43,588 nt of DNA from a bacterium (GTDB lineage: Bacteria > Margulisbacteria > Marinamargulisbacteria > GCA-2716485 > GCA-002719695): assembly GCA_002719695.1 (NCBI GenBank), contig PBEQ01000008.1, positions 14,725 to 58,312 on the forward strand. Direction: 5' to 3'. This document shows, one piece after another, positions 2,548 through 20,112 of this stretch; position 1 is the first letter of the stretch, and each line of letters begins with the position of its first letter. The position numbers and the translations under genes are program-made. The notes beneath the pieces were generated by a model that had not been told where the DNA came from, did no database searches, and saw only the letters and a program-made list of their open reading frames with translations.

Positions 2548-3201
2548 GTGTATACTAATGTGAAACAGCTACAAGTTTATTTAAATAAGGCTCGATTTGG
2601 AATATTTGTATTATTTATATGGATGTTTTTATATAATGGGTATAGTTTTTCAGAAACATCTAATACATTGATAGATATTAGCAATTCTAGTCAATATAGT
2701 TTATCTATCCTCAAAGATATTTCAAATGGATTAACGGATTTTTTTGGTATTATTAATAGAAAAGTTGGAAGTAAGGCAACAAATATTAATAATAAAGACA
2801 ACAAACTCGTTATTTTATCTATGAGCTTTAATCAATTGTCATCATCTCCAAATAGTTTGGGTAATATTATTGATCCCGATGAAGATGTTGAACCTGCTGT
2901 AACAAGTAAGCCCTTGGTATATCCAAACCCATTTAGACAATCAACACAGAATGGTGCTATTTTGTCATATGATTTGTCTAAAGATTTTTCATTTGAAATT
3001 CATATCTATAATATGTTGTCACAGCGCGTGTTTAAGCAAACATTTCAGGAGGGTGGCCCTGGCGCTAGAAAAGGAGCGAATAGATTGCAGATTAATCAAG
3101 AATCATTAGGGGGTTATTTATTATCATCAGGTGTTTATTTTTATGTGTTTGTTCATAATCAAGATGTGTTAGCAAAAGGTAAAATGGTGGTGAAACCATG
3201 A
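2548..3201 (+). CDS. Exported protein with C-terminal FlgD-Ig-like / T9SS sorting-signal-like domain
   Basis: GTG start; hydrophobic N-terminus (FGIFVLFIWMFLYNGYSFS); C-terminus 'KPLVYPNPFRQST...AILSYDLSKDFSFEIHIYNMLSQRVFKQTF...SGVYFYVFVHNQDVLAKGKMVVKP' has the YPNPF...GVYFY...GKMVV layout. Confidence 0.65.
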   Translation: MYTNVKQLQVYLNKARFGIFVLFIWMFLYNGYSFSETSNTLIDISNSSQYSLSILKDISNGLTDFFGIINRKVGSKATNINNKDNKLVILSMSFNQLSSSPNSLGNIIDPDEDVEPAVTSKPLVYPNPFRQSTQNGAILSYDLSKDFSFEIHIYNMLSQRVFKQTFQEGGPGARKGANRLQINQESLGGYLLSSGVYFYVFVHNQDVLAKGKMVVKP

Positions 3202-4178
3202 TTAAATTAAGATTATATATAATACTTTTATTGTGTATGTTTTGTGTGTCTTCAAATGAGGCATTTGAAACATATTACTTTTCTCCAGATAGTGTGGGTT
3301 CTTCTGCAAGATCGATTCGATTAGGCGGTGTTGAAGGGATGAGTTCACACGCTGATTCTGTATTTGAAAATCCAGCTGCATTGTATCGAATCAAGCGGTT
3401 TTCAAGTTCTTTTTTTCAAACTGAGTTTATGGAAGAGGTTGTGTATCAAAATGTTGCATTTGCAACGCGAACGTCATTTGGCGTTTTTGGGGTTGGTTTT
3501 TTTAATGTTGGTGTTGATAACATTCCTAAAACAGATAAAATCGAGTATGAGGATTATACAGATTATTTTGTGAGATATTATTTTAACTATCAAAACTCTT
3601 TGCTAAAAGGATCGTATCAATATTCTGTATCAGATTATATTCATATTGGCGTTTCTGGTTCTTATTTTTTTAATGATTTTGATACAGTTCGTGGAAGTGG
3701 TTATAACGGTGATTTTGGACTTTTGCTAGATCTTGGCCGATTTGAATTTTCTATGTTAATTCGTAATTTAATTTCATCTAACGAAGTTTTGTACACGGAT
3801 TCGGAAGTTGGTGATAATAGTAGTGATGGAATTACAGAAAAGCTTTCCATTCAAAACATTTATTCGGTAAACTATAAATTAAGGAACTTCACAATGTATG
3901 GTCAATTTAAAACAGTTGGGGAGCAACGAGAGTTGCATAATACGCTTGGATTACAGTTTAATCCACGATTTTTACCTTTTTTAAAAGGATCTGTGGCTTA
4001 TAAACAATATCCTCTTGTTGCTTATGAGGAAGGTGATTTAGCAATGCAAGATAAAAACTCTTTGGTTTTTGGATTAGAACTTAATTTATCAGGTTTGCAT
4101 TTTAATTATGCTTATGAGAGAAGCGATCATATTCAATTTGAACATAAAAATTATTTTTCAGTGGGGTTATCGTTTTAA
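3198..4178 (+). CDS. PorV/UPF0164-like outer-membrane beta-barrel protein
   Basis: Signal peptide, then 'GSSARSIRLGGVEGMSSHADSVFENPAALYRIKRFSSSFFQTEFMEEVVYQNVAFATRTSFGVFGVGFF' (early 'ARSxxLGGA...NPA' layout of PorV/UPF0164 proteins); alternating beta pattern; C-terminal aromatic 'FSVGLSF'. ATGA overlap with the upstream gene. Confidence 0.7.
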   Translation: MIKLRLYIILLLCMFCVSSNEAFETYYFSPDSVGSSARSIRLGGVEGMSSHADSVFENPAALYRIKRFSSSFFQTEFMEEVVYQNVAFATRTSFGVFGVGFFNVGVDNIPKTDKIEYEDYTDYFVRYYFNYQNSLLKGSYQYSVSDYIHIGVSGSYFFNDFDTVRGSGYNGDFGLLLDLGRFEFSMLIRNLISSNEVLYTDSEVGDNSSDGITEKLSIQNIYSVNYKLRNFTMYGQFKTVGEQRELHNTLGLQFNPRFLPFLKGSVAYKQYPLVAYEEGDLAMQDKNSLVFGLELNLSGLHFNYAYERSDHIQFEHKNYFSVGLSF

Positions 4179-4193
4179 TGACATGTTAAAAAA

Positions 4194-7100
4194 ATGTGGG
4201 TATTTATGACATTAGAAATTAGAAAATATTTAATCTTGATTTTCTTATTTATCACAACAGGGTTGTACGCTGGGTATAATGACATGGTTCTTACTCCTTA
4301 TTTGTATGATCATCTTAAACAAGAGCCTTATAATGGTAATTTTGATATTAGAGTAGGCTTTGTAACTGCTAATTATTATAAGAATATGTTTATTTGTCCT
4401 TATTCAGAATCGGATTCTTCTGAATGTCACTTAATCAATGCAACTGTTAATAATGGGCAGACTGTATTAAAACTTGAAAACATGGACGATCTAGATGCTC
4501 TAATTACTGCCAATCTGCAACTTAAATTAAAACTTGATAGTGGTGTTTCAATTATCCCAGAGGATGATAATTATCTTTTTAATTCATCGGCTTTTAGCAT
4601 CTTGAGCTATAAAACTGACTATGTTCAATTTCCTCAAGCTGAAAAGTTAGTTTCTTCATCTAGCTTTGTTAATCCTGTATTAGTTGAATCGGATGTTGAT
4701 TTTGGTTGGATGTTGTTTTCTAAAACAGCTCCTTATCTAGGAAAAAGAGATAGTGCTCAAAATGTTATGGTTGATGTGGCTACTATTAATGTTAAAGAAA
4801 ATTTATATGTAAATGGTCAGCCAATAGGAGAGAGTTTTTTATGGAAAACAAGTAATAAAGGAAGGATTTATGTTGAAACTGGTGTTGATTTAGCGATTAA
4901 GAAATTTTCTGATGGTGTGCCTGTTGGGGAGCCATTATATAGCGTTCAAGTTGTTGGTTCTATTGCTGCAAATGAGTTTTTTCAATCGGATAGTCCTTTT
5001 ACACTTTTTTCAGATTGGGTTACTCGTGATGCTCGTCCAGAGTATTTAGAGCCAGTAAATACCGAAGTTATGTATTTTGAAAAAGTTACACAAAATATTG
5101 GTTTTGGAGTGGCAGATCTCAAAGATAGATTAAATTCAAATGGCATATTATTAACAGGTAATATTAACACTAATACAGTTACATCTGGATCGGTCTTTTT
5201 TAAGAATAATGAATTTTTTGGTGTTAAACATCAAGCTGGTAGCAATGAAATTGTAACGTTTAATCCTATTCAATCAAATGGAAGTGAAAATCAGTTAGCC
5301 TTTTTTAATGATGCTAATAATATTAGCAGTGATCCGAGAGCAAAAATACAGACTAATTCTAATTCGACTGTAACATTATTTGATACGGAACGTTTTTTTC
5401 GTTTAACAGATTCTTTTGCTGTTGTATCTTCAAAAAATAATTATTTGTTTGGTATTAATTTTGATCAAGGAAATGTTGTTATTTCAAAAAATACTGATTT
5501 TGGATATAAACTGGGTGTTAATGGAAAAATTGATGCCAAAGATTATTATTTGCGTGGGTTTCCAATATCTATGCAAATGGCTTCAGGGGAATATTTTTAT
5601 CGAAATTTAGCTGTTTCTACAGAGGATAATTATAAAATTTATTATGATAGAGGTCATATTGCATTGGGTGCTTTTGAGTCTATGGATTCGCGATCTAGTT
5701 TAGAAATTGGAACTCCATTAAGGGAAGATAATCAGGTTCCAATCAATCCAGCTTTGTCTTTTACAAAAAGAGCTCAAGGTTCAGGAGATGATACTGGTTA
5801 CTCTTTGGGTATTAATAGCTCATATAATGATCAATTTTTTTTAGTTAATGGGTATGATTTAAATGTTAATGATCCGTTGTTATCTATTAAGAAAAATTAT
5901 TTAGGAATGGGTATCGTTGAGGCCAAGGCTAATTTACATGTTTCTGGAAATGCAGGAGTATTAATTCAAGGCCAGTTACGGTTTTTTGATGATGTATATC
6001 GTCAGGATGTCATCGATGCGTTTAATCAACCTGGGTCACAGCTTCAATTTAATCCGTATAGTGCTTCATTTAGATCAGGTATGTTTTTTGATTCTGAAAA
6101 TTATTTTACAAATGTCGGTGTTTTTTCTGCTGGTACGGGCTATTCTAACCAGGTTAGTGGCAACTTAGCTGCTGCTTTAGGTGGTGCTAGTCAGCGTGTT
6201 GCAGGTTTTTATTCAACGGCTATGGGTGGGACTTCCAATGATATTCTTTCGGGATTTTCGTTTTCAGGTGGAAAAGGTTCTTATATTGATCATCATGGAT
6301 CATTTGTTTTTTCTCATAGTGGGTTTTTGCCGGTTGGTGTAACAAGTATTTCTCAAGATGACCGTTTAAAAACTACTGATACAAGACAGTTTCTAATTGG
6401 AACACCTCAAAACTCGTTTGCGCCTGCTTATTTAGGGATAAATACTAATAATGCTTATGGATTAGCGACGATTAAAGCACGATCTATTGTTCCCAGTGTT
6501 TTTGAGGAAATGTTATCGTTATCTTCAAGTAATGCAACTATTTTAGTTAATGCCTTAAAAGATGAAAAATTTATTGATTCAGATGGTGATTTATTGGTGT
6601 ATAAAGATCGCTATTTTACACAATATTTTTCGGCAAATGACTTGCCTATTATTGCTAGTATTAACTCGGTTCAGGTTTATCAAAACCTTGTAGCCACTTT
6701 AAATAACAATAACCACAATTATTGGAATTCTAACAATGCTATTACGAGTACTAATTTGAGAGAATGGGCGCTTGTTCCAACAGGTAATTGGGATGACTTA
6801 TTTATGCCCGTTTTAGATGGGAATTCATCTACTCCCGTATTTAATAATAATGCTAACGTGGGAATTAGGTTTCATACATTATTTGTGAGTAAAAATGTTT
6901 CTAAGACAGCTGAAAAATTTAATGATGCTCTTAAAACTATAGGTATCTATGATGAGAATTCATCATTTAAGCAGTGTGGTAATTATGGAACGTGGTCTAC
7001 ATCTACTATTACTAGTGATATTATTGAGGGATATGTTGATACCATAGATTCTGTCCTTTCTAATGAATTAGAAAGCTTTACTAATATAACGACAACCAAT

Positions 7101-10100
7101 GTAAAAGATTTTATGGTGGAAGAATTAGATAAAGAGGGTGTTGATTGTGATGCTTGGCAAGATTTATATATTACGATTGCCACTGTAAACAAGAAAATTT
7201 ATCAAAAGGATGTTGATGTTCCCAATTTTGAAGCATCATTTTGCGACGGAAGTGATACTTGGCAATGTCAATACACATATTATGCATATAGCAACTATTT
7301 AAGTTCAACCGTTTATAGTCAATTATTTGATGCTATTCGTAGTAATATCGATCGCTTTGTATTAGATTTAGATAGTGTTGCATCTGGATCTTATTTGCTT
7401 TCTGATTTGGATCAGGGATTTATAGATGATATCAGTTTTGATGGTAGTACTTCAATTACTAGTGTTGATGTACAAGCTGTTTTAGAAAAACTTTTAACAA
7501 CGAATATCGTATTATTGGAAGGTCAAAATCAAGATGCTGTTTTTCGTGTTCAAAATAATAATAGTATCAATTTAGGATTTGATGAATTTGTTAACAATGC
7601 AGATTTTGCGATTAGTGGTAATATTGCTATCGTTGAGCCTCGTGTTGAATCGTTTATTTCTACTCCATCTTTAATCAAAATAGATAATTTATATGATCCG
7701 TATTTTGATTATAGTTCCAACCAACCGTCATCGTATGCAGATTCTCTTTTAGTAAGAAAAGCGCCTCAATCACAAGTCCCTAGTCCTACGTTTGTAATTA
7801 ATTCAAAAGGTATCGTTGGTTTAGGAGAAGTTGTTTCAACAGATTCTTATTTTTTACAGGTATCAGGAGAACTTATGGCGACTGTTTTTACAACGCCAGC
7901 TGGAGATTTAACACCGCCTGATGATGTTGTTATTGTTTTTTTGCATGAAGATACAACCCCTAATATTTATTTTACTCAAGGATTTTTGGGTTTGGGTGTT
8001 GCTAGTCCAAATTCGTTGTTACATTTAGGCTATTCTTCTTTGCATACTCCGTCTGATCCTGTTCTAACATTTGATTATTTTAATGATGACATCATAAAAG
8101 TAGGTGGAGCAAGTTCTTCAAATCCAGGATTTAAAATAGGGTCTCCGGATTCTTTTTATACAGCCCCAGCTTTGTTTGTGTCTGGAAATCAGACGGGTGA
8201 TCCACAATTACCCGGGTTTTTTACAAGCCAAGCTGGTGTTATATCTGGAAATCTCGGAATTAGTTCTACTTTACAGGTAAATACCGATAATGTGATGGAG
8301 GCAGGATTTGCAAGTAATGAAATTAAAACAAATGTATTATTTTTAAAAAATGATAATAATCAGTTTGTAAAAGTTTCTGCATCAGGGTTTCCTTGGAATT
8401 TTGATATAGACAAACGCTTAATCTATTTAAATGATGGAACATTAATTGGTATTCATACGTCTTTTCCTCAATATGATTTAGATGTTAGTGGGAATTTAAA
8501 TTTTATAGGAAACGAACAAGCTTCTTTTAATGTTCTTAATAATGTTAGGTTACATGAATTATTCTTAACAACAAATGTAACTGATGATGTTACTAACATG
8601 AACTTGGCTTTTAAGGACACTGTTGTTGATAGTAAACTATTTGTTGAATCTCAAAATTTGATCTTAAAGTTTAATAATGTTGATTTTAATCAAACAAGTG
8701 ATATTACTGCTGGAGAGGGGTATTGTGGAGATTTTGTGATTTTTCAACAATTAACGGATGTTTACTCTTCTAAGTTTCACGATCCTGATCCTGATAATGG
8801 TATTCCCCCTTGCTTTGAAGGTCCAGATACTAATTATGAGGGTTATCCTACTTCAGAAGTGAATTTTAGTTTTGATTTTAGAGATGTTACTTATAACTTT
8901 TTTACGTATAATGACACTGCGAAAGATTGGGATTTAGCAACTTCTGGAAGAGTGACTGAGAATATGTCTATCTTGGAAATAACAGGAAATATTTTATTAG
9001 ATTTAGATAGCCCTACTGTTAATACTGATATTGTTTTTCCTAGTTCTGATTCAGAGAATGTTTTGTATTTCGGTAAGTCACAGGATACGTCTATCAGGCA
9101 TAAGGGTGATTATTGGGCGGATTCGTATTCGTTTTCAGCAGTATCTCTGAATGTTGTGATTACAAATAACAGTGGTAACGATTTTACTTCAGCAATTACA
9201 GGCATTGATATTCAAATAGATAATATTGACAGTACAGGTCAAACGAAGAGTTTAACAAATGGAACGGAAGTTGTAGGTTTGTATGTTGATGTTACAAATG
9301 TTAGTGTACAAGATTCAGGAGTTGATACGAGAGGGTATCGCTATCCTGCTGTGTTTATGGGGGATGTTTTAATGGCAACATCTAATGCCTTAACACATAT
9401 AACACGAAATATGGGGGTTTTAACAGGCCGTTTAGAAACAGAGACATCGTATAATTATTTATTAGCTGTTCAAGGTACTTTAAAAGCGGTTGGTCAGAAG
9501 GCTGATCTAATTATATCAGATGGTTTGTTTTCACCTTCGTTACAAGTTAATGCTGGTTTTATCAATGCTTTTAATGCCAATATTGATTCTAATAAAGCAA
9601 GGGTTGGCATTAATAAAACGAATCCACAAGTTGAGCTGGATATTGATGGAAATATTCGCGCTTCTTATTGGGAAGCAAATAAAGGGGCTCTTCGTTCTAA
9701 TTATTTGTCTCATTCAAACGATACGTTTATTGTTAATCAAAATGGATTTGTTGGATTTGGTGTTACTGAGCAAGCTGATAATGATGGAGATGTATTATTT
9801 TACAAATTATTTGATGAAACTTCATTAGCTAATTTATCCAATGCTTTTATTTATAAATCATATCAGTTAGATGTTACTAAAGATATTACTTTTAGTAACA
9901 ATGTTACGGGTTTAAGCTTAGCATTTCCAATGGAAGACGATAATTTCTTTGGTATGATGGATTCTAGCCAGGCAACAGCTGTATTAAAAGGTTTAGATGT
10001 TAATTTGAGCGATATATCTCTTACAAATAATGCACGGTTAATTGGTGTTAGTGTTAATGTTTTGGATAATAGTAATAGTTATGCTGCTGTATTTTTAAGT

Positions 10101-13100
10101 GGAAATGTTGGAATTGGAACAGCAGATCCTGGTTATGATCTTGATGTTAATGGGACTGTTTTTGCAACGAGTTTTAATGCTTTAGAGTCAAAAATTAGTT
10201 CAGTCAATAATCTTACTGTTCAGACCTTAAATACAGCAACAGCTGCTTCTGTAACGTTTAATGTCGTTACAATGAATGCTGTTGATGTTAATACCTTAAC
10301 ATTTGGACCGAATGTTGGATTTAGTTTTGATTCTTTAGTTAGTTCTGGGGGCGGTGATATTTTAAATTTAGACTTAGATAATGATATTTCTGTTACTACC
10401 ATGAATAATGTTTCAACGTTAAATGTTAAGCAAGATAATAATTCTAAACTTATTATTTCAAATCAACTAACGGCTGTAACGGGAAATATTTTTACCAAAG
10501 TTGAATTAATGGATGGATCTGTTTCGGCTATGGAAGTTTTATTGTCGTTAAAATCGCCATCAATTAATTTAACCATTGCTGGTGATAATAAAATGAGTGC
10601 AGGATCTTTAATTGTATCTAATAATCAGTATCAAACATTAGTTGCTGATCAATCTTACTTGTATATTAATGAGAGTTTTCCTGACAGTGATAGTTATCGC
10701 TATCCTGTTAACATAGAATTACAGGTTACAACAAATACAATAAATGGTAATACGACGTCATTTGTATCAGGTAATGTTAAGTCGTGGAATGCTTTAGGTA
10801 TATTTAGTGGGGTAACTGCTAATAATAGTTTAAATGCTATTTCTTTAGAACCACATTCCAATCATCAACAAACCTGGATGGTTGTTTCTAAGCAACTTGA
10901 TAAACAAGCTAATGGTCCAATATTGACCGATACTACCCTTGATTTAAGGCTATATGAATTTGAGAACGAAGATGATAGTAAATTAGATTTTACAAATATT
11001 ACTGCAGGTAGTAATTATATAGCGCCTTCTTTGTATATAACAGCAACGGGTAACGTTGCCTTATTTCCACAGCCGGTTGATCTTCAGGATTTGGCAAGCC
11101 TAGCAACATTTAATGTTTTTGGAACGGCTGCTTTTGAAAATGTTGTGGCACCTACTTTAAATGTTGCTACTATTAATTCTATTGAAAACCTTTCTATAGG
11201 AGAGATTGGGGGCTATATAGCTGTTAATAGTACCGTTACGATGAATGCAACTATGTATGTTGCTGATAAATTAGAAATGAAAATTATGGCTACGGAAGGT
11301 AGTGATAATGATTACTTGGGTATTGTTAACGATGAATTTGCATTATATGCTGCCACGGCTAATGAGGTTGGTACTACTGCAGATTTATGGATGCATGTAA
11401 AGCGTGATGGAGGTTTTAGTGTTAGCGTTAATTTAATGCAGGATTTTACGTTTCGAAATGGTGCTATTATTGTTTTTTCTGATAAAGGGGTGCCTACACC
11501 ATCTAATTTAATGGTTACAACTAATTCATTACCTGATCATTATGTTTTGTCTTTTAATGATCCTTCAACATCCAATCGAGTATCTTTACAATCTACTATT
11601 TCAGGAGATACGGTTTTTGCTAACAATAGCATTACCTTAAATAGTTTAGATATTGGGATTGAACGTAATGAGGTTAATTCTTCTCGAGTTATTAGAGGCT
11701 TAGATATACAAGTTGCTTCTGCAAATTTAAACGATGCTATTGTTGGGTTACGGGTTTCAATGAATGGTCTTGCTAATACAACTAGTTCATTTAAAAATGC
11801 TGCCATTTTTAATGGAGGCGATGTTTTATTGGTATCTAAAAATATTGATTTTGATTCATTTTCTCTTGGAAACCCTTCCGCTAATTTCCATATTGCTTCA
11901 CGTAATATGGGGGCTTCCCCAAATTTTATTATTGCTAATAATAATTTTAATTTACTGACAGTATCGTCCAATAAGGTTGGTGTAGGTGTTTCAACAAATG
12001 CTGTTTTAGATAGTTTGGTCTATGTGGAAACGCAATCGTATTCTTCTAGCACAAACGATGGATCTCTTTTTGCTATTAAGGATCAAAATGGATTGCCTTT
12101 TATTGATATAAAGCAATCAACTAATAATCAGATTACATTAAACAGTACCGTTTTATTTCAAAATCAAGCGACATCTAATTTCACATTTTTAGATACTGAT
12201 AGCATACAACTAAATCAATCGGATGTTTTTACCTTTGATTTTATTAATCACAATATTGGTATGAGACAAGCAACTCCAATTGCTCAATTTCATGCCAAAG
12301 ATGTTTTAACTCGTGAGGTTGTTGATAAAGCAAGAAAGACAATTCAGATACTTGATGCTATTGATAATCAGAATATGAATATAACGGGTTTTGATATTTC
12401 TATTGGGTCTGAAGAAAATAATGAGATGGATGCTGCCGTTTTAAAGGCAATCAATATTGATATGACAACGTTAGATGTTGATCCAGATTCAGTAATTTAT
12501 GGTATGTATGTAGATGTAACAGAAAATGAAACAGTATCTGCTAATAGTATTGTTTTTAAACAGGGTAATGTTGGTATTGGGACTACTCAAATTAACCCAA
12601 GAGATGTGTTAGATATTGAAGGGACATTATATGTTGGAGAAAATTTGCTAACTCCATCTGATAATATTTATATTAATGCTCAACAGGTAACTGCAAGTTC
12701 ATTAGCTGTTAGTAAAGGGTTAGCTGTTAATTCAGATGTTGTATGGACTAATATCGAGACAGAGGAATTGGTTTTTTCAGAAATGTTTGATCCAACTGGA
12801 TCGCAATATTCTTTTGATTTTGATAATTTTTTTCAGGCAGATGATATTACGATTAACATTCTTTCTTTTCCCGATGTAAGTGGTACTGAATTATATCTAA
12901 AGCCTCTAGCAAAATTAGTGATAGGAACAAGTATTACTTTAGAAGATAATCAATCTATTTTAGTTGATTCTGGATCACAAAAAGTTTATATGAGAGATGT
13001 TTATATGGACAGTACCAAGGAGTTATCTGTGTCTACCATAAATGCTCAGGCTCAAATAATAGATGTTTATGGCGGTATTCGTTTAAATAACGTTGCTAAG

Positions 13101-16100
13101 ATAGAGGTGTTAGAAGCTCCTTATTTTCAATTTAGTACTAATACAACTACATTAAATAATTCTTTAACGGCATCTGGTAGCAAAATTTGGTTTACCCCTT
13201 CTGGTAATAAAGAGGTTGCTCTAGGATTAGGGGGTACTTCCTCAGTTCAAAATGGATACATTCCTGTTGCAAGTCAAGGCGGATTAACATTTAACCAGAC
13301 GTTAAGAATTGAAGACTCAGGTAAAAATACAGTCCTGATTGTTTCTAAAAATGAGATCTTAGCTAAACTTGATGCAACAAGTGCCTTTCCTCTCAATGGA
13401 CTAGAAAATATTGATTTGCAATTAAATTATCGTTCTCCTTCAGAACTTAACGCTGCTAATGACTTAAATATGAAAGGATTATATGTTCGGGTTACATCTT
13501 CTAATTTGTCAGATCAGGAAAGTTCAGATGATGTAGTAACTGGCGTTAGTATTAATATGTCAGAGTTAATGGCTGATTATTATTTAGGTGGCGGTGTGTT
13601 AGCCGATGTAAAAAAACATGCTGCTATTTTTGAAGGAGGTCGTGTTTTATTTTCCCCGTCATACAACAGTACGATTCCAACGCCCACTTCTCGTGTTATT
13701 GGCCAGGATACGCAGGGGAATGATATTACGATTGGTGTTGATGTTTATGTTTCTAGTAATATTCACGAGGATACTAATCTTGCGAAACTTTACCAAGATT
13801 TTTTAGTTGAGTTAAGTACGGGTAACAACCAGTCTGTATTTGCTATTGATCATACTATGGGAGTTAATGCAGATGATAATGGTAATCAGCTATTTGTTGA
13901 TATTGGTGTTTCACGTAATAGTACAACAAGTTTTGATACTAATGACTATATGGTTCAAATTGCAACAACCAATAGCGACTTGGTTAGTATCAGATCAAAT
14001 TCAAATGATATGTTTACAATTAAAAATGATACGGTTTTTATAGGTGATACCAGTGGTTTACAACCAAATTTATCTGTTAGTTTTAATATAAAACCTTATA
14101 GTGCTTCTGCGGTTATTGTAAGCATGAATAAACTTAAGATTGATGATAAGGGAGTGGCTGTAGGTGGTTCTTATAACCCTAGTGATCGCGTAGCTAACTT
14201 AGATATTCGTGCTACGAGTCCTACTAGTAATGTGACATTTTCAGATAGTAGTACTACGTTTGGTGTAATTACAAAAAATGTTGATCATATTCAGTTTTTA
14301 ATTAATACGGCAAACGTTACTAATCAGACTAGTTTAGCTAGTGGCCTTGTCCACCCAAATATAGACTTCGCTTTAATAACAACTAACGCAAGCCCTATTT
14401 TTATTGGACATGATAACTCAGCAAGAAATTCAATATTTAATCGGTATGCCGTAGTTATTCAAAATAATGATAACTTACAAGCTGTAGATGATAGTTTTTT
14501 AAGTCTTGGTGTAAGTTCAAATGTCACCATGTCTGAAATCGTATTTGGATCTGAATCATTAAAATTTATGGCTAATAATAACTCTGTTTTAACGTTTTAT
14601 CATCCTAATCGAGATGGTAATTTAAAGGTTGGTTTATTTGTTGATCAGCCTACTGAAACCTTTACATTAAATCGTTTTTCACCTACCCATCATTTTATGC
14701 ATGTTACGGATGATTCCGGTAATGAGCCGTTTTTTATTGATTTAAATAATAAAATTGGCGTTGGTGGCATTACTACTAGTTTAGTAGCTGATTTAACTGT
14801 TTCTGGTCAAATGTTAATTAATCGTATTGAATATTCAGAGGATGCCAAAACGCGTTTGATTGTTAATGGAACGGTTGAAGTTTCTGGAAATAATTATATT
14901 GGTGCTAATCCACTTGTTATCGATATTACCCAAAATAGTATGGAGCAGTTTATTGCTAAGGATATTGTATCTAACTTAAATACGGATATCTGGGATCATA
15001 ATATAGCGGGTTATGCAATAACGATTGGCAACCAAAGTGTTTCAAACTCAGGTTTTCCTCATTATGGTTTATATTCAGATGTAAGGGATCTAGATGCTAA
15101 GGCTGCGGAAGATTCGTACAAGTATGCAGGTGTTTTTTATGGTAAGTCAGGAAGTCAATATGATTCTAAGGTTGTTATTGATTTAGTGGCTGATCCTAGT
15201 AAGTATTGGACACATCATAAGAAACAAGCTTGTACTCAACTTCCGGGTTTTACAACTAACGACGGCAATAACTGTTTAAAAAATGTAAATTATGATTTTC
15301 CGTTAACGGTTATTGCTTCTGATAACTTAAGCACAGGTACGGAGATTGTTTCGTTTCGTAATGGAGATAGTGGAATCACGTTTAATTTTACATTAGTTCC
15401 TTTGGGAGTAACGGCTAATAATAATAATACTAATCTTAAAACAGATGGGGTTTTTGATACTCAATTAACAATGAGAAGTTTTGCTAATACCTTGCCTGAT
15501 GGGGATAATAATATACCGTTAGTTCAAAGTTTTTTAACAGAGATTTGGATTGCTCTTACCGACGCACAGATTATTAATAATGACGGACAGATTAATGAAA
15601 CTAACATGGCACAATTTAATAATATTAATACATTTCCTCCTATCGCATCCATTTCAGAAAATATTTTTGCTGTTTTAGAAAGTTTTACAACTCAAAATGT
15701 TTTTGCGATGCAATATGAGTTTAATTATAATCAAACAGAAGCTAATATTTGTGTTATTGATGATCTTGTTGGAGAAATTTGGGTACCGGAAAGCCCTAAT
15801 AGTCGTCCACATCCTGATTTTGGTGATTGTGTTCATAGTAGTTTTGTTTCAGAAAGTACAGGAACTGGTAATAAAACAATGTTTCCATTAGCATTTTCAA
15901 CGGGTAATGATCCTGCCTTTTTAGAATTATTTAATATTGCTCGAGTAGGGATTAATTTAGTTACAGCTAATAATGCGTTTGTGAATGGCGATGTTAAGTT
16001 TTCAGAAACATTGGTTATTGGCAGTCTTTCGGATTTAGATGTTGGTGTAACAACTGATTATAAAGATACTACTTTAAAACTTTATCAGGGTGGTTCTGAT

Positions 16101-18554
16101 AATGTAAACGATGACAGTATAGGTGACCATTCTTTTAAAACAAAGAATGGGTTTCATATGGATTTTGAAGATTATGTTGCTAGTATTTTTTTAGAGGCAA
16201 ATAGTAACTATTTCCATACTACCCCTAATGTTCATGATTATGTCGATCTTGATCAACATAAACTTACGGTACTTAATAAAGGCGTTATTCGATATCGCTA
16301 TATGTCTTATAAGACTCGTCATCAAGATGTTCGAATTGGACAATATGTTCCTCAGACAGATGCGTTTAATGATCTGATAAATCCTGATGCGACTGTGATT
16401 TTTTCGGGTGGGCCGTGTATTTCTCCGGAATTATCGTCAGATGAAAATTGTTCAGAAAATTTGGATGTTTTATCCATTGGTCGAGACAATCGGTTTCTTG
16501 GAGAAAATATCTATGCTTCTCATCTTAAAGTTAATTTGCAAGAGTTAGCAGGAAATAATGATATCCAATTTAGTATTGGATCTACAATCGGTTCAGAGTT
16601 TCAAGCACCTTTAATTGCGGGTGCCTATATGGATACATCCTATGTTGGTATAGGACGTGCTTTTGATACACTCAATAAACCAAAATCGGTTTTACATGTT
16701 AAAGATTACTCAGATTTTTCAAGTGATGGTTATGTTGAATTTTTTCAAACCAGTTCCATTGATCCTGACTTGTTTTTATATGGTGCAGAAGCCAATCAAG
16801 AGATGTATTTTAAATCAAAAGAACATAGTTATGATAACTTTGGTATCCCTACTAGCCTTAGAACGGCTGCTGAAGAAGGTGCTGGTTGTGATGGTGATTA
16901 TCGGGTGTATGGCAATAAGCCTATTTGGGATAATTTTACACCATTTGGGTCAGATCCAACATATTTTGAGCTTTTGCCTACCCACAATATATGGGAAGAC
17001 CTAAATGATTTTTCAAGAACAGTATTTGCTCCTACTACTAAGAATGAAGTGATAAGTTATATAGGAAGCGGTACTGATGGTTATCAGAATACCATTAATA
17101 GTTTTACTCTTGAAAATGGAGCTCAAAGAGAATCTGTTTATTCCTGCCATTATTTTGCGTGGATTGTTAAAGATGTTTTGGGGGTTGATTATCAAGGGCA
17201 ACCTACTGGCCAAAATGCTAATAGCCCAACATTAGCGACGAGTAATGTTAACCTTTCTTCTACTGCGTTTCCAAATGTAGGTCCACAGCAAACACAGGTA
17301 TGTTCAATTGACCTATATAATTGGAGTGATTTTGTTACAAAATTTAATGCAGGTTGTTATATACAACAAATGAAAGATAATAACATCGCCTTTCCTGATT
17401 TATTACGCTTAGATGACTCTTCGAATTCGCCTCGATTTGTACCACGTTCCCATGATTCTGTTCCGGCAGCTGCATCGCCTGTCACTACTTATGATGCTGG
17501 TACTTATAGAAATTATGGATCTATTGCTGCGAGAGATTGTAAGAAAGTTGATTTTGATACTTTTCCAGACAACGATACTGTAGCCAGAGATACACCACTC
17601 ACATATGGTGAACTCACAGACTCAGAAAAAAGAACATGGTCGTATGTAACTAAAAATGAAGATAAAGATGCTCTTTATCTGATGCAAAACGATAAGAGCG
17701 ATCCGCTTAATATGTGTAGGACAAACTTTGTAAATCCAGTTAAAATCCGTCGATCAGGAGAGTCTGATTTTAACAATAATGACTATTTAACACAAATCGA
17801 AGCTCTTGATGCTTCTAGGCCTATTTTAGCGTTAAACTTTGTTAATTCGACAATTGGAGAAGGGACTAATTTTGCTTCATTTTTTTCAGGGCCTGAGCCT
17901 AACGTTCCTTTAGGAGAAATTGAAGGCATGGATACTAGCATTTCCAGTTCTTTAGGTGCAGGTGTTCAGTTTTCGTCACCTGGAAGAGATTATGCAGAGT
18001 ATATGATTAAAAGAGATCCAAATGAAGTGATTAACCCAGGTGATATTGTTGGTGTTTTTTCTGGTGAAATATCCTTAGATACCCATGATGCTGATACCAT
18101 TATGGTTATATCTAGTGCGCCTGTTGTGGTTGGTAATTTTCCAGGTGATGATGTGAAACATTTATATGAATTAATTGCATTTCTTGGACAGGTTCCTGTA
18201 AAAGTTATCGGAGGGGTTAATCCAGGTGATATTTTGGTTCCTTCTGGTAAAGGTGATGGTACCGCTATTGCTGTTCATGAAGATAACTTATTATCAGAGC
18301 AATTACCACTTATTATTGGCCGAGCTTGGGATGGGTATGAGGGGGATGATGTCGCTTACATTAATACGTTGGTTGGATTTTCGTTTAATATTGATATTAT
18401 TAATCGTTATATTCATAAAGCTGAACAACGCTTGGATGATGAAAAAGATGCTAATAAGCAGTTAGATGAATCATTAAAAGCTCATTTAAAAGAACAACAA
18501 GATTTAATTAAACGGTTAGAAAAAGCCTTATCAATGAACAAGGATTCACAATGA
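4194..18554 (+). CDS. Giant (4786 aa) exported fibre-like protein 1: tail-fibre/trimeric-adhesin-like repeats, YadA-head-like segment, Peptidase_G2-like C-terminus, C-terminal coiled coil
   Basis: Single uninterrupted ORF; N-terminal signal peptide (IRKYLILIFLFITTGLYA); repeated 'GNVGIGTxxPxxxLDVNGTV'-type motifs; C-terminal 'SPGRDYAEYMIKRD...GDIVGVFSGEISLDT...ISSAPVVVGN...GQVPVKVIGGVNPGDILVPSGKGDGTAIA...IIGRAWDG'; terminal Lys/Glu/Asp-rich heptad-like tail. Confidence 0.85.
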   Translation: MWVFMTLEIRKYLILIFLFITTGLYAGYNDMVLTPYLYDHLKQEPYNGNFDIRVGFVTANYYKNMFICPYSESDSSECHLINATVNNGQTVLKLENMDDLDALITANLQLKLKLDSGVSIIPEDDNYLFNSSAFSILSYKTDYVQFPQAEKLVSSSSFVNPVLVESDVDFGWMLFSKTAPYLGKRDSAQNVMVDVATINVKENLYVNGQPIGESFLWKTSNKGRIYVETGVDLAIKKFSDGVPVGEPLYSVQVVGSIAANEFFQSDSPFTLFSDWVTRDARPEYLEPVNTEVMYFEKVTQNIGFGVADLKDRLNSNGILLTGNINTNTVTSGSVFFKNNEFFGVKHQAGSNEIVTFNPIQSNGSENQLAFFNDANNISSDPRAKIQTNSNSTVTLFDTERFFRLTDSFAVVSSKNNYLFGINFDQGNVVISKNTDFGYKLGVNGKIDAKDYYLRGFPISMQMASGEYFYRNLAVSTEDNYKIYYDRGHIALGAFESMDSRSSLEIGTPLREDNQVPINPALSFTKRAQGSGDDTGYSLGINSSYNDQFFLVNGYDLNVNDPLLSIKKNYLGMGIVEAKANLHVSGNAGVLIQGQLRFFDDVYRQDVIDAFNQPGSQLQFNPYSASFRSGMFFDSENYFTNVGVFSAGTGYSNQVSGNLAAALGGASQRVAGFYSTAMGGTSNDILSGFSFSGGKGSYIDHHGSFVFSHSGFLPVGVTSISQDDRLKTTDTRQFLIGTPQNSFAPAYLGINTNNAYGLATIKARSIVPSVFEEMLSLSSSNATILVNALKDEKFIDSDGDLLVYKDRYFTQYFSANDLPIIASINSVQVYQNLVATLNNNNHNYWNSNNAITSTNLREWALVPTGNWDDLFMPVLDGNSSTPVFNNNANVGIRFHTLFVSKNVSKTAEKFNDALKTIGIYDENSSFKQCGNYGTWSTSTITSDIIEGYVDTIDSVLSNELESFTNITTTNVKDFMVEELDKEGVDCDAWQDLYITIATVNKKIYQKDVDVPNFEASFCDGSDTWQCQYTYYAYSNYLSSTVYSQLFDAIRSNIDRFVLDLDSVASGSYLLSDLDQGFIDDISFDGSTSITSVDVQAVLEKLLTTNIVLLEGQNQDAVFRVQNNNSINLGFDEFVNNADFAISGNIAIVEPRVESFISTPSLIKIDNLYDPYFDYSSNQPSSYADSLLVRKAPQSQVPSPTFVINSKGIVGLGEVVSTDSYFLQVSGELMATVFTTPAGDLTPPDDVVIVFLHEDTTPNIYFTQGFLGLGVASPNSLLHLGYSSLHTPSDPVLTFDYFNDDIIKVGGASSSNPGFKIGSPDSFYTAPALFVSGNQTGDPQLPGFFTSQAGVISGNLGISSTLQVNTDNVMEAGFASNEIKTNVLFLKNDNNQFVKVSASGFPWNFDIDKRLIYLNDGTLIGIHTSFPQYDLDVSGNLNFIGNEQASFNVLNNVRLHELFLTTNVTDDVTNMNLAFKDTVVDSKLFVESQNLILKFNNVDFNQTSDITAGEGYCGDFVIFQQLTDVYSSKFHDPDPDNGIPPCFEGPDTNYEGYPTSEVNFSFDFRDVTYNFFTYNDTAKDWDLATSGRVTENMSILEITGNILLDLDSPTVNTDIVFPSSDSENVLYFGKSQDTSIRHKGDYWADSYSFSAVSLNVVITNNSGNDFTSAITGIDIQIDNIDSTGQTKSLTNGTEVVGLYVDVTNVSVQDSGVDTRGYRYPAVFMGDVLMATSNALTHITRNMGVLTGRLETETSYNYLLAVQGTLKAVGQKADLIISDGLFSPSLQVNAGFINAFNANIDSNKARVGINKTNPQVELDIDGNIRASYWEANKGALRSNYLSHSNDTFIVNQNGFVGFGVTEQADNDGDVLFYKLFDETSLANLSNAFIYKSYQLDVTKDITFSNNVTGLSLAFPMEDDNFFGMMDSSQATAVLKGLDVNLSDISLTNNARLIGVSVNVLDNSNSYAAVFLSGNVGIGTADPGYDLDVNGTVFATSFNALESKISSVNNLTVQTLNTATAASVTFNVVTMNAVDVNTLTFGPNVGFSFDSLVSSGGGDILNLDLDNDISVTTMNNVSTLNVKQDNNSKLIISNQLTAVTGNIFTKVELMDGSVSAMEVLLSLKSPSINLTIAGDNKMSAGSLIVSNNQYQTLVADQSYLYINESFPDSDSYRYPVNIELQVTTNTINGNTTSFVSGNVKSWNALGIFSGVTANNSLNAISLEPHSNHQQTWMVVSKQLDKQANGPILTDTTLDLRLYEFENEDDSKLDFTNITAGSNYIAPSLYITATGNVALFPQPVDLQDLASLATFNVFGTAAFENVVAPTLNVATINSIENLSIGEIGGYIAVNSTVTMNATMYVADKLEMKIMATEGSDNDYLGIVNDEFALYAATANEVGTTADLWMHVKRDGGFSVSVNLMQDFTFRNGAIIVFSDKGVPTPSNLMVTTNSLPDHYVLSFNDPSTSNRVSLQSTISGDTVFANNSITLNSLDIGIERNEVNSSRVIRGLDIQVASANLNDAIVGLRVSMNGLANTTSSFKNAAIFNGGDVLLVSKNIDFDSFSLGNPSANFHIASRNMGASPNFIIANNNFNLLTVSSNKVGVGVSTNAVLDSLVYVETQSYSSSTNDGSLFAIKDQNGLPFIDIKQSTNNQITLNSTVLFQNQATSNFTFLDTDSIQLNQSDVFTFDFINHNIGMRQATPIAQFHAKDVLTREVVDKARKTIQILDAIDNQNMNITGFDISIGSEENNEMDAAVLKAINIDMTTLDVDPDSVIYGMYVDVTENETVSANSIVFKQGNVGIGTTQINPRDVLDIEGTLYVGENLLTPSDNIYINAQQVTASSLAVSKGLAVNSDVVWTNIETEELVFSEMFDPTGSQYSFDFDNFFQADDITINILSFPDVSGTELYLKPLAKLVIGTSITLEDNQSILVDSGSQKVYMRDVYMDSTKELSVSTINAQAQIIDVYGGIRLNNVAKIEVLEAPYFQFSTNTTTLNNSLTASGSKIWFTPSGNKEVALGLGGTSSVQNGYIPVASQGGLTFNQTLRIEDSGKNTVLIVSKNEILAKLDATSAFPLNGLENIDLQLNYRSPSELNAANDLNMKGLYVRVTSSNLSDQESSDDVVTGVSINMSELMADYYLGGGVLADVKKHAAIFEGGRVLFSPSYNSTIPTPTSRVIGQDTQGNDITIGVDVYVSSNIHEDTNLAKLYQDFLVELSTGNNQSVFAIDHTMGVNADDNGNQLFVDIGVSRNSTTSFDTNDYMVQIATTNSDLVSIRSNSNDMFTIKNDTVFIGDTSGLQPNLSVSFNIKPYSASAVIVSMNKLKIDDKGVAVGGSYNPSDRVANLDIRATSPTSNVTFSDSSTTFGVITKNVDHIQFLINTANVTNQTSLASGLVHPNIDFALITTNASPIFIGHDNSARNSIFNRYAVVIQNNDNLQAVDDSFLSLGVSSNVTMSEIVFGSESLKFMANNNSVLTFYHPNRDGNLKVGLFVDQPTETFTLNRFSPTHHFMHVTDDSGNEPFFIDLNNKIGVGGITTSLVADLTVSGQMLINRIEYSEDAKTRLIVNGTVEVSGNNYIGANPLVIDITQNSMEQFIAKDIVSNLNTDIWDHNIAGYAITIGNQSVSNSGFPHYGLYSDVRDLDAKAAEDSYKYAGVFYGKSGSQYDSKVVIDLVADPSKYWTHHKKQACTQLPGFTTNDGNNCLKNVNYDFPLTVIASDNLSTGTEIVSFRNGDSGITFNFTLVPLGVTANNNNTNLKTDGVFDTQLTMRSFANTLPDGDNNIPLVQSFLTEIWIALTDAQIINNDGQINETNMAQFNNINTFPPIASISENIFAVLESFTTQNVFAMQYEFNYNQTEANICVIDDLVGEIWVPESPNSRPHPDFGDCVHSSFVSESTGTGNKTMFPLAFSTGNDPAFLELFNIARVGINLVTANNAFVNGDVKFSETLVIGSLSDLDVGVTTDYKDTTLKLYQGGSDNVNDDSIGDHSFKTKNGFHMDFEDYVASIFLEANSNYFHTTPNVHDYVDLDQHKLTVLNKGVIRYRYMSYKTRHQDVRIGQYVPQTDAFNDLINPDATVIFSGGPCISPELSSDENCSENLDVLSIGRDNRFLGENIYASHLKVNLQELAGNNDIQFSIGSTIGSEFQAPLIAGAYMDTSYVGIGRAFDTLNKPKSVLHVKDYSDFSSDGYVEFFQTSSIDPDLFLYGAEANQEMYFKSKEHSYDNFGIPTSLRTAAEEGAGCDGDYRVYGNKPIWDNFTPFGSDPTYFELLPTHNIWEDLNDFSRTVFAPTTKNEVISYIGSGTDGYQNTINSFTLENGAQRESVYSCHYFAWIVKDVLGVDYQGQPTGQNANSPTLATSNVNLSSTAFPNVGPQQTQVCSIDLYNWSDFVTKFNAGCYIQQMKDNNIAFPDLLRLDDSSNSPRFVPRSHDSVPAAASPVTTYDAGTYRNYGSIAARDCKKVDFDTFPDNDTVARDTPLTYGELTDSEKRTWSYVTKNEDKDALYLMQNDKSDPLNMCRTNFVNPVKIRRSGESDFNNNDYLTQIEALDASRPILALNFVNSTIGEGTNFASFFSGPEPNVPLGEIEGMDTSISSSLGAGVQFSSPGRDYAEYMIKRDPNEVINPGDIVGVFSGEISLDTHDADTIMVISSAPVVVGNFPGDDVKHLYELIAFLGQVPVKVIGGVNPGDILVPSGKGDGTAIAVHEDNLLSEQLPLIIGRAWDGYEGDDVAYINTLVGFSFNIDIINRYIHKAEQRLDDEKDANKQLDESLKAHLKEQQDLIKRLEKALSMNKDSQ
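6117..6324 (+). other. YadA-head-like (Hep/Hag-like) left-handed beta-roll segment in giant protein 1
   Basis: 'GVFSAGTGYSNQVSGNLAAALGGASQRVAGFYSTAMGGTSNDILSGFSFSGGKGSYIDHHGSFVFSHSG': short-period G-x-x-S/N-x-A-x-G repeats. Confidence 0.7.
17988..18400 (+). other. Peptidase_G2-like / intramolecular-chaperone-like C-terminal domain of giant protein 1
   Basis: DYAEYM...GDIVGVF...VVVGN...GQVPVKVIGGVNPGDILVPS; homologous to the C-terminus of giant protein 2 (30189-30590). Family assignment from motif recall. Confidence 0.6.
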
Positions 18555-19402
18555 TAATAAAAATGATTTCCTTATTTTTAACATATTGTCGCTCAGAATG
18601 TTCATTTTCTGATCATACCTGTCATGCTTATGAAAGAGATTTAAACCAATTTATAGCGGTGTCAAATTATCAATCATCGGGTTCATTAACGGGTTATTAT
18701 GAATGGTTACAGAGTCAGTCATATGCTCCTAAAACTATTCATAGAAAATTAGCATCTTTACGAAGTTTTTTTCAGTTTTGTATTCAAGAGGGTGTTTTAA
18801 ATCCCAATGTTATGCTTGCTATTCCTCGTAGTGTGGCGCCTGTTCGGATTCCTCAGGTAATGGATGAAGAGACTATTAAATTATTATTTAAATTGCCTAA
18901 TATAACTACCCTTAAAGGATTGCGAGATCGTGTCTTACTTGAATTATTGTATAGCACAGGAATGAGAGTGTCCGAATGTACTTCTTTAACACCATCTCAG
19001 ATTGATTTAATGGAAGGTGTCATTACTGTTAATGGCAAAGGTGATCAACAACGGTTAATTCCTTTAACAAATCGCTCTGTAGAGTATTTAACGTTATATT
19101 TAGCAAAGGTAACGAAAAAATCTTGGGTTTTTGAAGGTCGAAACAACCGTCCTATATCTCGTTTTACGGTTTATTCTATTATTAAATCATACGCAATGCG
19201 CTTATCTAAAACTCAGCCTATTTCTCCTCATAGCTTTAGACATGCATTTGCAACCCATTTGTTAGAAGGTGGTGCCAGACTAAGAGATGTTCAAATTTTA
19301 TTGGGACATAAGCAATTAAATTCAACGCAGGTGTATACGAATATTGCAAACTCTGCTATTAAAAAAACGTTTTTACAGGCACATCCAAGGGGGTTAGTAT
19401 GA
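18551..19402 (+). CDS. XerC/XerD-type tyrosine recombinase
   Basis: Full catalytic set visible: GMRVSE (R), GKGDQQR (K), HSFRH, LGHKQ, TQVYTNI (Y); SAM-like N-terminal core-binding domain. ATGA overlap with giant gene 1. Confidence 0.95.
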   Translation: MIIKMISLFLTYCRSECSFSDHTCHAYERDLNQFIAVSNYQSSGSLTGYYEWLQSQSYAPKTIHRKLASLRSFFQFCIQEGVLNPNVMLAIPRSVAPVRIPQVMDEETIKLLFKLPNITTLKGLRDRVLLELLYSTGMRVSECTSLTPSQIDLMEGVITVNGKGDQQRLIPLTNRSVEYLTLYLAKVTKKSWVFEGRNNRPISRFTVYSIIKSYAMRLSKTQPISPHSFRHAFATHLLEGGARLRDVQILLGHKQLNSTQVYTNIANSAIKKTFLQAHPRGLV

Positions 19403-20112
19403 GTATTAGTTTGATTTTAATACTTATAATTTCAGTTTGTATTCATGAATGGGCCCATGGTTATGCTGCTTTTTTGTTGGGGGATAAAACGCCAATGTAT
19501 TTAAAACGACTTACTTTAAATCCTTTACGTCATCTTGATTTGGTAGGATCTATCATAGTTCCTACTATGTTGGTAATTTCAGGTACGTCTTTTGTTTTTG
19601 GTTGGGCCAAGCCCGTTCCCGTAAATAATCGCTATTTTAAACATCCAAAATCAGGTATGTTACTGGTAGCTATGGCAGGCCCTTTAAGTAATTTTTTCTT
19701 AGCTTTTTTAATGGTTATGGTCATGCCTTTATTGGCATTTATACTAGGATCTCATGGATCGACGGAATTTTTTCTTCAGGTTTGTGTTTATGTTGTTTAT
19801 ATTAATGTAGTTTTAGGTGTTTTTAATTTGATTCCTATTCCCCCATTGGATGGTTCCTATGTTTTAATGCCGTTTATTCCTGTAAAATATCATCATTTGA
19901 TAGCACGGTTTTCTATGTTTGGATTATTTTTTGTGGTTGGATTACTATCAATTTCTTGGTTTCAAGTTTTATTTCATCGTATTATAAAAGCTAGTGTTTC
20001 TTTTTTATTTTCACTTAAAATTGAATCAATGTTTTATAATGCAATATTTTTATTGTTTTTTTCGTTCTATAATATAGGGTATAAAGGAATCTTTATGGAT
20101 TTAAGTTTATGA
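19399..20112 (+). CDS. Site-2-protease-family (M50) membrane metallopeptidase
   Basis: HEWAH (HExxH) in TM1, 'FNPLRHLDLVGSI', and 'GVFNLIPIPPLDGSYVL' (NxxPxPxLDG) are typical of M50 S2P-like proteins. ATGA overlap on both sides. Confidence 0.92.
   Translation: MSISLILILIISVCIHEWAHGYAAFLLGDKTPMYLKRLTLNPLRHLDLVGSIIVPTMLVISGTSFVFGWAKPVPVNNRYFKHPKSGMLLVAMAGPLSNFFLAFLMVMVMPLLAFILGSHGSTEFFLQVCVYVVYINVVLGVFNLIPIPPLDGSYVLMPFIPVKYHHLIARFSMFGLFFVVGLLSISWFQVLFHRIIKASVSFLFSLKIESMFYNAIFLLFFSFYNIGYKGIFMDLSL

What the first reader, a model, noticed from the sequence alone, without database searches (positions are those of the whole stretch)
4194..18554. 4786-aa uninterrupted fibre-like ORF
A 14.4-kb single reading frame encoding roughly 0.5 MDa, with a signal peptide, degenerate 'GNVGIGTxxPxxxLDVNG' repeats and a phage-appendage-like C-terminal domain. 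It has no YadA-type membrane anchor and no visible T9SS signal at its own C-terminus. It is among the larger bacterial proteins and its anchoring mode is unexplained.
Basis: partly seen in the sequence, partly recalled or inferred. Interest (0 to 1): 0.7.

Follow-up and report, generated by a model that had tools for sequence, protein, structure and literature searches.

The report
Twin giant phage-fibre-like surface proteins
A marine bacterium related to Marinamargulisbacteria carries two conserved giant proteins built like virus tail fibres, each ending in a predicted self-cutting folding helper, next to genes for an export-tagged small protein and an outer-membrane barrel that may hold the fibres on the cell.

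Summary
In detail: the 4,786-codon frame at 4194-18554 is open, starts with a signal peptide, has no later membrane segment and carries VGIGT repeats. It is not a lone oddity. A second giant (20109-30752, 3,547 aa) has the same architecture in the same operon-like gene run. First- and second-position giants form two separate clades, recur across the class (including a single-cell genome) and are under purifying selection (omega 0.12 and 0.08 in one genome pair), so misassembly is very unlikely. The C-terminal domain is homologous to the autocleaving chaperone of phage phi29 gp12; the VGIGT repeats match the trimeric beta-helix 'capping loops' of Bdellovibrio MAT fibres. Best reading: giant MAT-like trimeric surface fibres assembled by a G2-type chaperone that probably cuts itself off. 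The anchoring gap has a candidate: a small protein with a T9SS type-A signal plus a PorV/PorQ-like barrel directly upstream. Where the downstream gene could be read, 18 of 22 such pairs precede a fibre gene, against 0 of 5 PorV-like genes without the small partner. That the pair exports or anchors the fibre is inferred, not shown. New variant of a known kind.

The parts
2548..3201 (+). Small secreted protein (217 aa as called, start codon uncertain) ending in a T9SS type-A sorting domain (about 2917-3195); candidate adaptor or anchor
   Evidence: TIGR04183 1.5e-6, 28.1 bits against cut-off 23; PNP...GVYFY...GK motifs conserved in 19 homologues
3198..4178 (+). PorV/PorQ-family-like outer-membrane barrel, overlaps the previous gene by 4 nt
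   Evidence: NF033709 7.5e-9 but under the cut-off; conserved upstream of the first giant
4194..18554 (+). Giant A, 4786 aa, MAT-like fibre
4194..4271 (+). Giant A: signal peptide, cleavage site estimated by eye
   Evidence: Sequence; hydropathy peak at residues 1-22
4272..4793 (+). Giant A: N-terminal beta domain shared by all giants
   Evidence: Alignments; beta-sandwich with pLDDT 86-96 over residues 21-110 of the giant B model
6831..7493 (+). Giant A: Cys-containing module (aa 880-1100), matched only in the same genus
15111..15953 (+). Giant A: Cys-containing module (aa 3640-3920), matched only in the same genus
16761..17783 (+). Giant A: Cys-rich module (aa 4190-4530) just before the chaperone; possible binding tip (inference)
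   Evidence: Matched only in the same genus
17943..18380 (+). Giant A: G2-type intramolecular chaperone; predicted self-cleavage between R4598 and D4599 (17987/17988)
18381..18551 (+). Giant A: C-terminal helix, probable coiled coil
   Evidence: AlphaFold helix 147-202 of the 203-residue model
18551..19402 (+). XerC/D-type tyrosine recombinase between the giants; probably housekeeping
   Evidence: PF00589 1.5e-40; syntenic
19399..20112 (+). M50 membrane protease; probably housekeeping
   Evidence: PF02163 3.8e-12; syntenic
20109..30752 (+). Giant B, 3547 aa, paralogue with signal peptide, N-domain, 18 clear VGIGT units, G2 domain (about 30141-30602, DYAEY at 30189) and C-terminal helix

Best explanation
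The ORF is one of two paralogous giant, secreted, phage-fibre-like proteins. Shown by sequence: a signal peptide, a conserved N-terminal beta domain, VGIGT units of the triple-beta-helix type, and a C-terminal domain homologous to the phi29 gp12 chaperone followed by a long helix. Inferred from homology: three chains associate at the C-terminal chaperone, the triple beta-helix zips up from there, and the chaperone then cuts itself off in front of the DYAEY motif. Inferred from gene association: the fibre is exported to, and held on, the outer membrane with the help of the adjacent T9SS-signal protein and PorV-like barrel rather than by a signal of its own. Likely use, inferred from MAT and phage fibres: contact with a surface or partner cell, A being the faster-evolving fibre with lineage-specific Cys-rich modules. 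Confidence is for the secreted trimeric fibre with a G2 chaperone; the anchoring step alone is about 0.35-0.4.
For: C-terminal domain: PF11962 in 19 of 19 members, phi29 gp12 by profile and by fold, D and E of DYAEY invariant, E replaced by Q in the 'pre-mature' gp12 structure 3suc. Repeats: profile hits MAT fibre 8ond at 5e-14, other MAT fibres and MyRF stalks; N-domain profile also ends on the MAT loop motif. Pair: two ancient clades, 100/99 support, synteny, purifying selection. Anchoring: 18 of 22 readable CTD-PorV pairs precede a fibre with this N-domain, against 0 of 5 PorV-like genes without the CTD gene, including extra loci (L117, L120) and another class (L128).
Against: No direct evidence of trimerisation, cleavage, export or surface location. 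The residue before the predicted cut is Ser in phi29 but Arg in A and Ala in B. This protein alone scores under the PF11962 cut-off. PorV-like and CTD genes also occur without fibres (L124, L125, L127), and a T9SS translocon was not convincingly identified. The locus counts are not corrected for shared ancestry.
Confidence: 0.72

Rival explanations
1. The fibre is retained by its own parts: the N-terminal beta domain binds an unrelated surface element, as postulated for MAT proteins, or the chaperone and helix stay uncut and act as anchor. The CTD/PorV pair is only a neighbour.
For: The MAT N-domain is thought to bind an unidentified surface element (PMC10769870). The residue before the cut is not Ser. 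Bacteroidota proteins with the same domain keep long helical extensions after it and show no evident sorting motif there.
Against: The CTD-PorV-fibre order recurs at separate loci and in another class, while PorV-like genes lacking the CTD gene have no fibre.
Confidence: 0.35
2. The giants belong to a prophage or a phage-tail-like particle.
For: G2 chaperone domains are common in viral contigs (208 hits, up to 37% identity among those kept) and in phage tail spikes.
Against: Signal peptides; no phage structural genes in the window; the locus sits among housekeeping genes in conserved order across the class; no match in annotated phages.
Confidence: 0.03
3. The giants stay in the periplasm as structural or scaffold proteins and never reach the surface.
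For: Only a Sec-type signal peptide is present on the proteins themselves.
Against: Architecture of surface fibres; adjacent outer-membrane export-type genes; fast evolution relative to neighbours (A 47%, B 65%, YchF 83%, AtpA 96% identity to G001).
Confidence: 0.12
4. The frame is an assembly artefact of repeats.
For: Draft genome, 74% complete.
Against: No DNA tandem repeats; colinear giants in independent assemblies including a single-cell genome; omega 0.12.
Confidence: 0.01

Closest known systems
Bdellovibrio mosaic adhesive trimer (MAT) fibres (PMC10769870)
   Same: Signal peptide, conserved beta-rich N-domain, VGIGT-type capping-loop motif, C-terminal autoproteolytic chaperone in one subfamily
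   Different: MAT proteins are typically about 1,000 aa with S74 or lectin-like ends; here 3.5-4.8 kaa with a G2 chaperone and a CTD/PorV partner
phi29 gp12 pre-neck appendage / Peptidase_G2 chaperone (PF11962; 3gqh, 3suc)
   Same: C-terminal domain by sequence and fold, with the D and E of the DxAEY motif
   Different: No Ser before the cut; a long helix follows; the body is a bacterial secreted giant, not a virion part
T9SS adhesins with dedicated shuttles, e.g. SprB with SprF (PMC12618676)
   Same: Giant putative adhesin next to a barrel of the T9SS shuttle type
   Different: The sorting signal is on a separate small protein, is type A, and the barrel is PorV/PorQ-like and upstream
MyRF triple-beta-helix stalk (7dc3, 5yhu)
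   Same: The repeat motif matches its stalk
   Different: Eukaryotic transcription factor with an S74-type chaperone
Bacteroidota proteins with DYAEY domains (L058-L091)
   Same: Same chaperone domain, and in some a recognisable N-domain
   Different: Shorter frames where complete; extra helical C-terminal extension; no PorV-like neighbour within the short flanks

Membership tests
Peptidase_G2 intramolecular chaperones (PF11962) | Profile match | tested here: inconclusive
   19 of 19 members match at E<=0.1, best 1.5e-8, but giant A has 16.7 bits against a cut-off of 25
Peptidase_G2 intramolecular chaperones (PF11962) | Fold of phi29 gp12 C-terminal domain | tested here: met
   Foldseek best hits 3gqh 5.1e-4 and 3suc 9e-4, probability 1.0, TM 0.46-0.57
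Peptidase_G2 intramolecular chaperones (PF11962) | Cleavage-site residues | tested here: inconclusive
   D and E of DxAEY invariant; the Ser before the cut in phi29 is Arg/Ala here and Ala in Dpo31
Peptidase_G2 intramolecular chaperones (PF11962) | Self-cleavage and trimerisation | not testable with these tools
   Needs expression
Mosaic adhesive trimer (MAT) fibres | Capping-loop motif V-G-G/N-x-x-x-P-x-x-x-L in a beta-helix | tested here: met
   Repeat profile finds 8ond 5e-14, 8oml 5e-6, 8ojn 1e-5
Mosaic adhesive trimer (MAT) fibres | Beta-rich N-domain of about 130 aa right after the signal peptide | tested here: inconclusive
Mosaic adhesive trimer (MAT) fibres | Trimer | not testable with these tools
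   Only single-chain prediction was available
S74 (endosialidase-type) chaperone | S74 domain with SDxxxK motif at the C-terminus | tested here: not met
   No S74 hit in Pfam scans; G2-type domain instead
T9SS type-A cargo | Own C-terminal sorting domain | tested here: not met
   No Por_Secre_tail on either giant; it is on the neighbour 2548-3201
YadA-type trimeric autotransporter | C-terminal YadA barrel anchor | tested here: not met
   No Pfam hit; C-terminus is G2 domain plus helix

The most novel reading that the evidence does not exclude
A fibre without its own type IX signal is exported and anchored in trans: a small dedicated T9SS-signal protein, carried by a PorV-like barrel, docks the fibre's N-terminal domain on the outer membrane of a bacterium outside Bacteroidota.
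Probability: 0.35. Interest if true: 0.75.

Novelty: new variant of a known kind. Interest (0 to 1): 0.52.

Why it matters
It ties giant proteins of an uncultured phylum noted as rich in huge proteins (PMC11573180) to a known fibre architecture with a plausible assembly route, and gives a specific, testable answer to how such fibres could be held on the cell. If the trans-anchoring reading is right, it would extend T9SS logic beyond cargo that carries its own signal, and beyond Bacteroidota.

Tried and rejected
Pfam scans of the full giants gave only weak, unrelated hits (Spore_YunB 0.059; Botulinum_HA-17 0.0062, under its cut-off, on a repetitive stretch of B), judged chance matches. PF11962 against the whole genome in six frames found nothing at 0.001, because single members are too divergent; the family profile was needed. 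Foldseek of the N-terminal model gave no match under 0.001; that model is only partly confident (mean pLDDT 67). SprA search: only short local matches, none over the cut-off; the matching 1839-aa frame has no Pfam, NCBIfam or PDB support as SprA. PorU/sortase model: matches fall only in its C-terminal part, around the sorting domain. Paired Cys as a general feature was rejected: only the window's family has many. Prophage and misassembly readings rejected (see rivals). The promoter scan was near shuffled expectation. The original gp12 autocleavage paper was not held, so cleavage chemistry rests on PDB sequences and secondary citations.

Full report
Observation. The frame 4194-18554 is open for 4786 codons and begins with a signal peptide; no other strongly hydrophobic segment follows. 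A second giant frame, 20109-30752 (3547 aa), has the same plan: signal peptide, N-terminal beta domain, VGIGT units, G2-like domain, C-terminal helix. The genes 2548-3201, 3198-4178, 4194-18554, 18551-19402, 19399-20112 and 20109-30752 overlap by 4 nt or lie 15 nt apart, so they look like one operon.

Reality of the frame. TRF finds no tandem repeats in 4194-30752. Of 56 genomes searched (the own genome and relatives), 15 carry the C-terminal domain. Several relatives have two giants about 10-13 kb apart, interleaved with the same xer and usually M50 genes (some add a Nudix-like gene), and usually flanked by ylmE, the CTD protein, the PorV-like gene, ychF, DUF368 and M16. The sources are independent and include a single-cell genome of Candidatus Marinamargulisbacteria (AG-410-N11), whose first giant is 4858 aa. 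Titles of matching contigs place the window among Marinamargulisbacteria relatives. In the close pair G019/G021, omega is 0.118 for A and 0.075 for B (dS is near 1, so values are approximate). A tree of the C-terminal region puts first-position and second-position giants on opposite sides of a branch with 100/99 support, so the pair is old and both copies are kept.

C-terminal domain. All 19 aligned members hit PF11962 at E<=0.1, the best at 1.5e-8; giant A alone scores 16.7 bits against a cut-off of 25. Against the PDB, the family profile finds phi29 gp12 (3gqh 1.2e-5, 6qz9 8.5e-5, 3suc 0.0028) and the Dpo31 chaperone domain (28nb 1.3e-5), both halves of the domain aligning in order. The AlphaFold model (mean pLDDT 86) has 3gqh and 3suc as the only Foldseek hits under 0.001. 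Chain 3gqh starts at the D of DFAEY, and the 'pre-mature' 3suc has Q where E stands in DFAEY; both D and E are invariant in the giants. [quoted passage not shown] That Ser is Arg in A, Ala in B and mostly Ala in relatives; Dpo31 also has Ala. Cleavage is therefore likely but unproven.

Body. A profile of 14 VGIGT units from A and B finds, in the PDB, Bdellovibrio MAT fibres (8ond 5e-14, 8oml 5e-6, 8ojn 1e-5, 8ol4, 8on4) and MyRF stalks (7dc3, 5yhu) as its best hits. The MAT paper describes this loop motif, the trimeric beta-helix, and a conserved N-terminal domain with no PDB homologue and no identified surface partner (PMC10769870). Giant A has 5 units at E<1e-3 and B 18, so A is the more degenerate. 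A also carries Cys-containing modules (aa 880-1100, 3640-3920, 4190-4530) that match only giants of the same genus; the last lies just before the chaperone, near where MAT fibres carry their binding tips. Calling it a tip is inference.

Anchoring. The protein at 2548-3201 has a T9SS type-A sorting domain over NCBI's cut-off, and 3198-4178 is PorV/PorQ-like but under the cut-offs. I collected PorV-like loci from the relatives and scored their neighbours with profiles. Of 24 distinct loci with the small CTD gene directly upstream, 18 have a fibre with the giants' N-domain directly downstream, 4 do not (L124, L125, L126, L127), and 2 could not be read (L108, L123). Of 5 PorV-like genes without the CTD gene, none has a fibre. 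Some positive loci are additional to the main locus (G016:C14, G026:C50) or in another class of the phylum (G031). The loci were chosen from the best PorV hits and share ancestry, so no p-value is claimed. In F. johnsoniae, large type-B adhesins depend on a cognate barrel shuttle, usually encoded next to them (PMC12618676); here the signal sits on a separate small protein. T9SS-type signals ring over the cut-off in 55 of 56 genomes, but a translocon was not convincingly identified.

Verdict. Ordinary parts of the finding are the fibre architecture and its chaperone, both known kinds. New, as far as the searches here show, are the scale, the conserved tandem pair, the G2 chaperone on a MAT-like body, and the association with a CTD/PorV pair. 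The function on the cell (adhesion to a surface, host or prey) is inferred from MAT and phage fibres.

Noticed in passing
window 38617-39324: ATP synthase c-subunit gene encodes three fused hairpins; the middle one has Q (VTQTS) where the other two have E (VTETA, ITETT), suggesting a ring with two ion-binding carboxylates per three hairpins. About 95% identical in two sister species.
   Followed up: partly
56 genomes of the phylum: T9SS type-A sorting signals score over the NCBI cut-off in 55 of 56 genomes, although T9SS is usually described as confined to Bacteroidota.
   Followed up: partly
L129, L139 (G000:C7:6902-12394): Conserved 1.84-kaa protein next to queA; the G001 copy has a short SprA-like match but no Pfam, NCBIfam or PDB family. 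Possible outer-membrane translocon.
   Followed up: partly
G011:C40 and G043:C5: Six-frame open frames of 10,112 and 12,153 aa carrying T9SS-type signals.
   Followed up: no
L125 (G003:C27), from 3741: A CTD-PorV pair followed by a 357-aa gene and then an open frame of at least 5,387 aa without the giants' N-domain.
   Followed up: no
L058, L062, L064, L072 and others: Bacteroidota proteins with the DYAEY chaperone end in a further helical extension of about 100 residues, with no evident T9SS signal.
   Followed up: no
L124 (G000:C27:7898-9534): A second CTD-PorV pair in the window's own genome without a fibre gene next to it.
   Followed up: no
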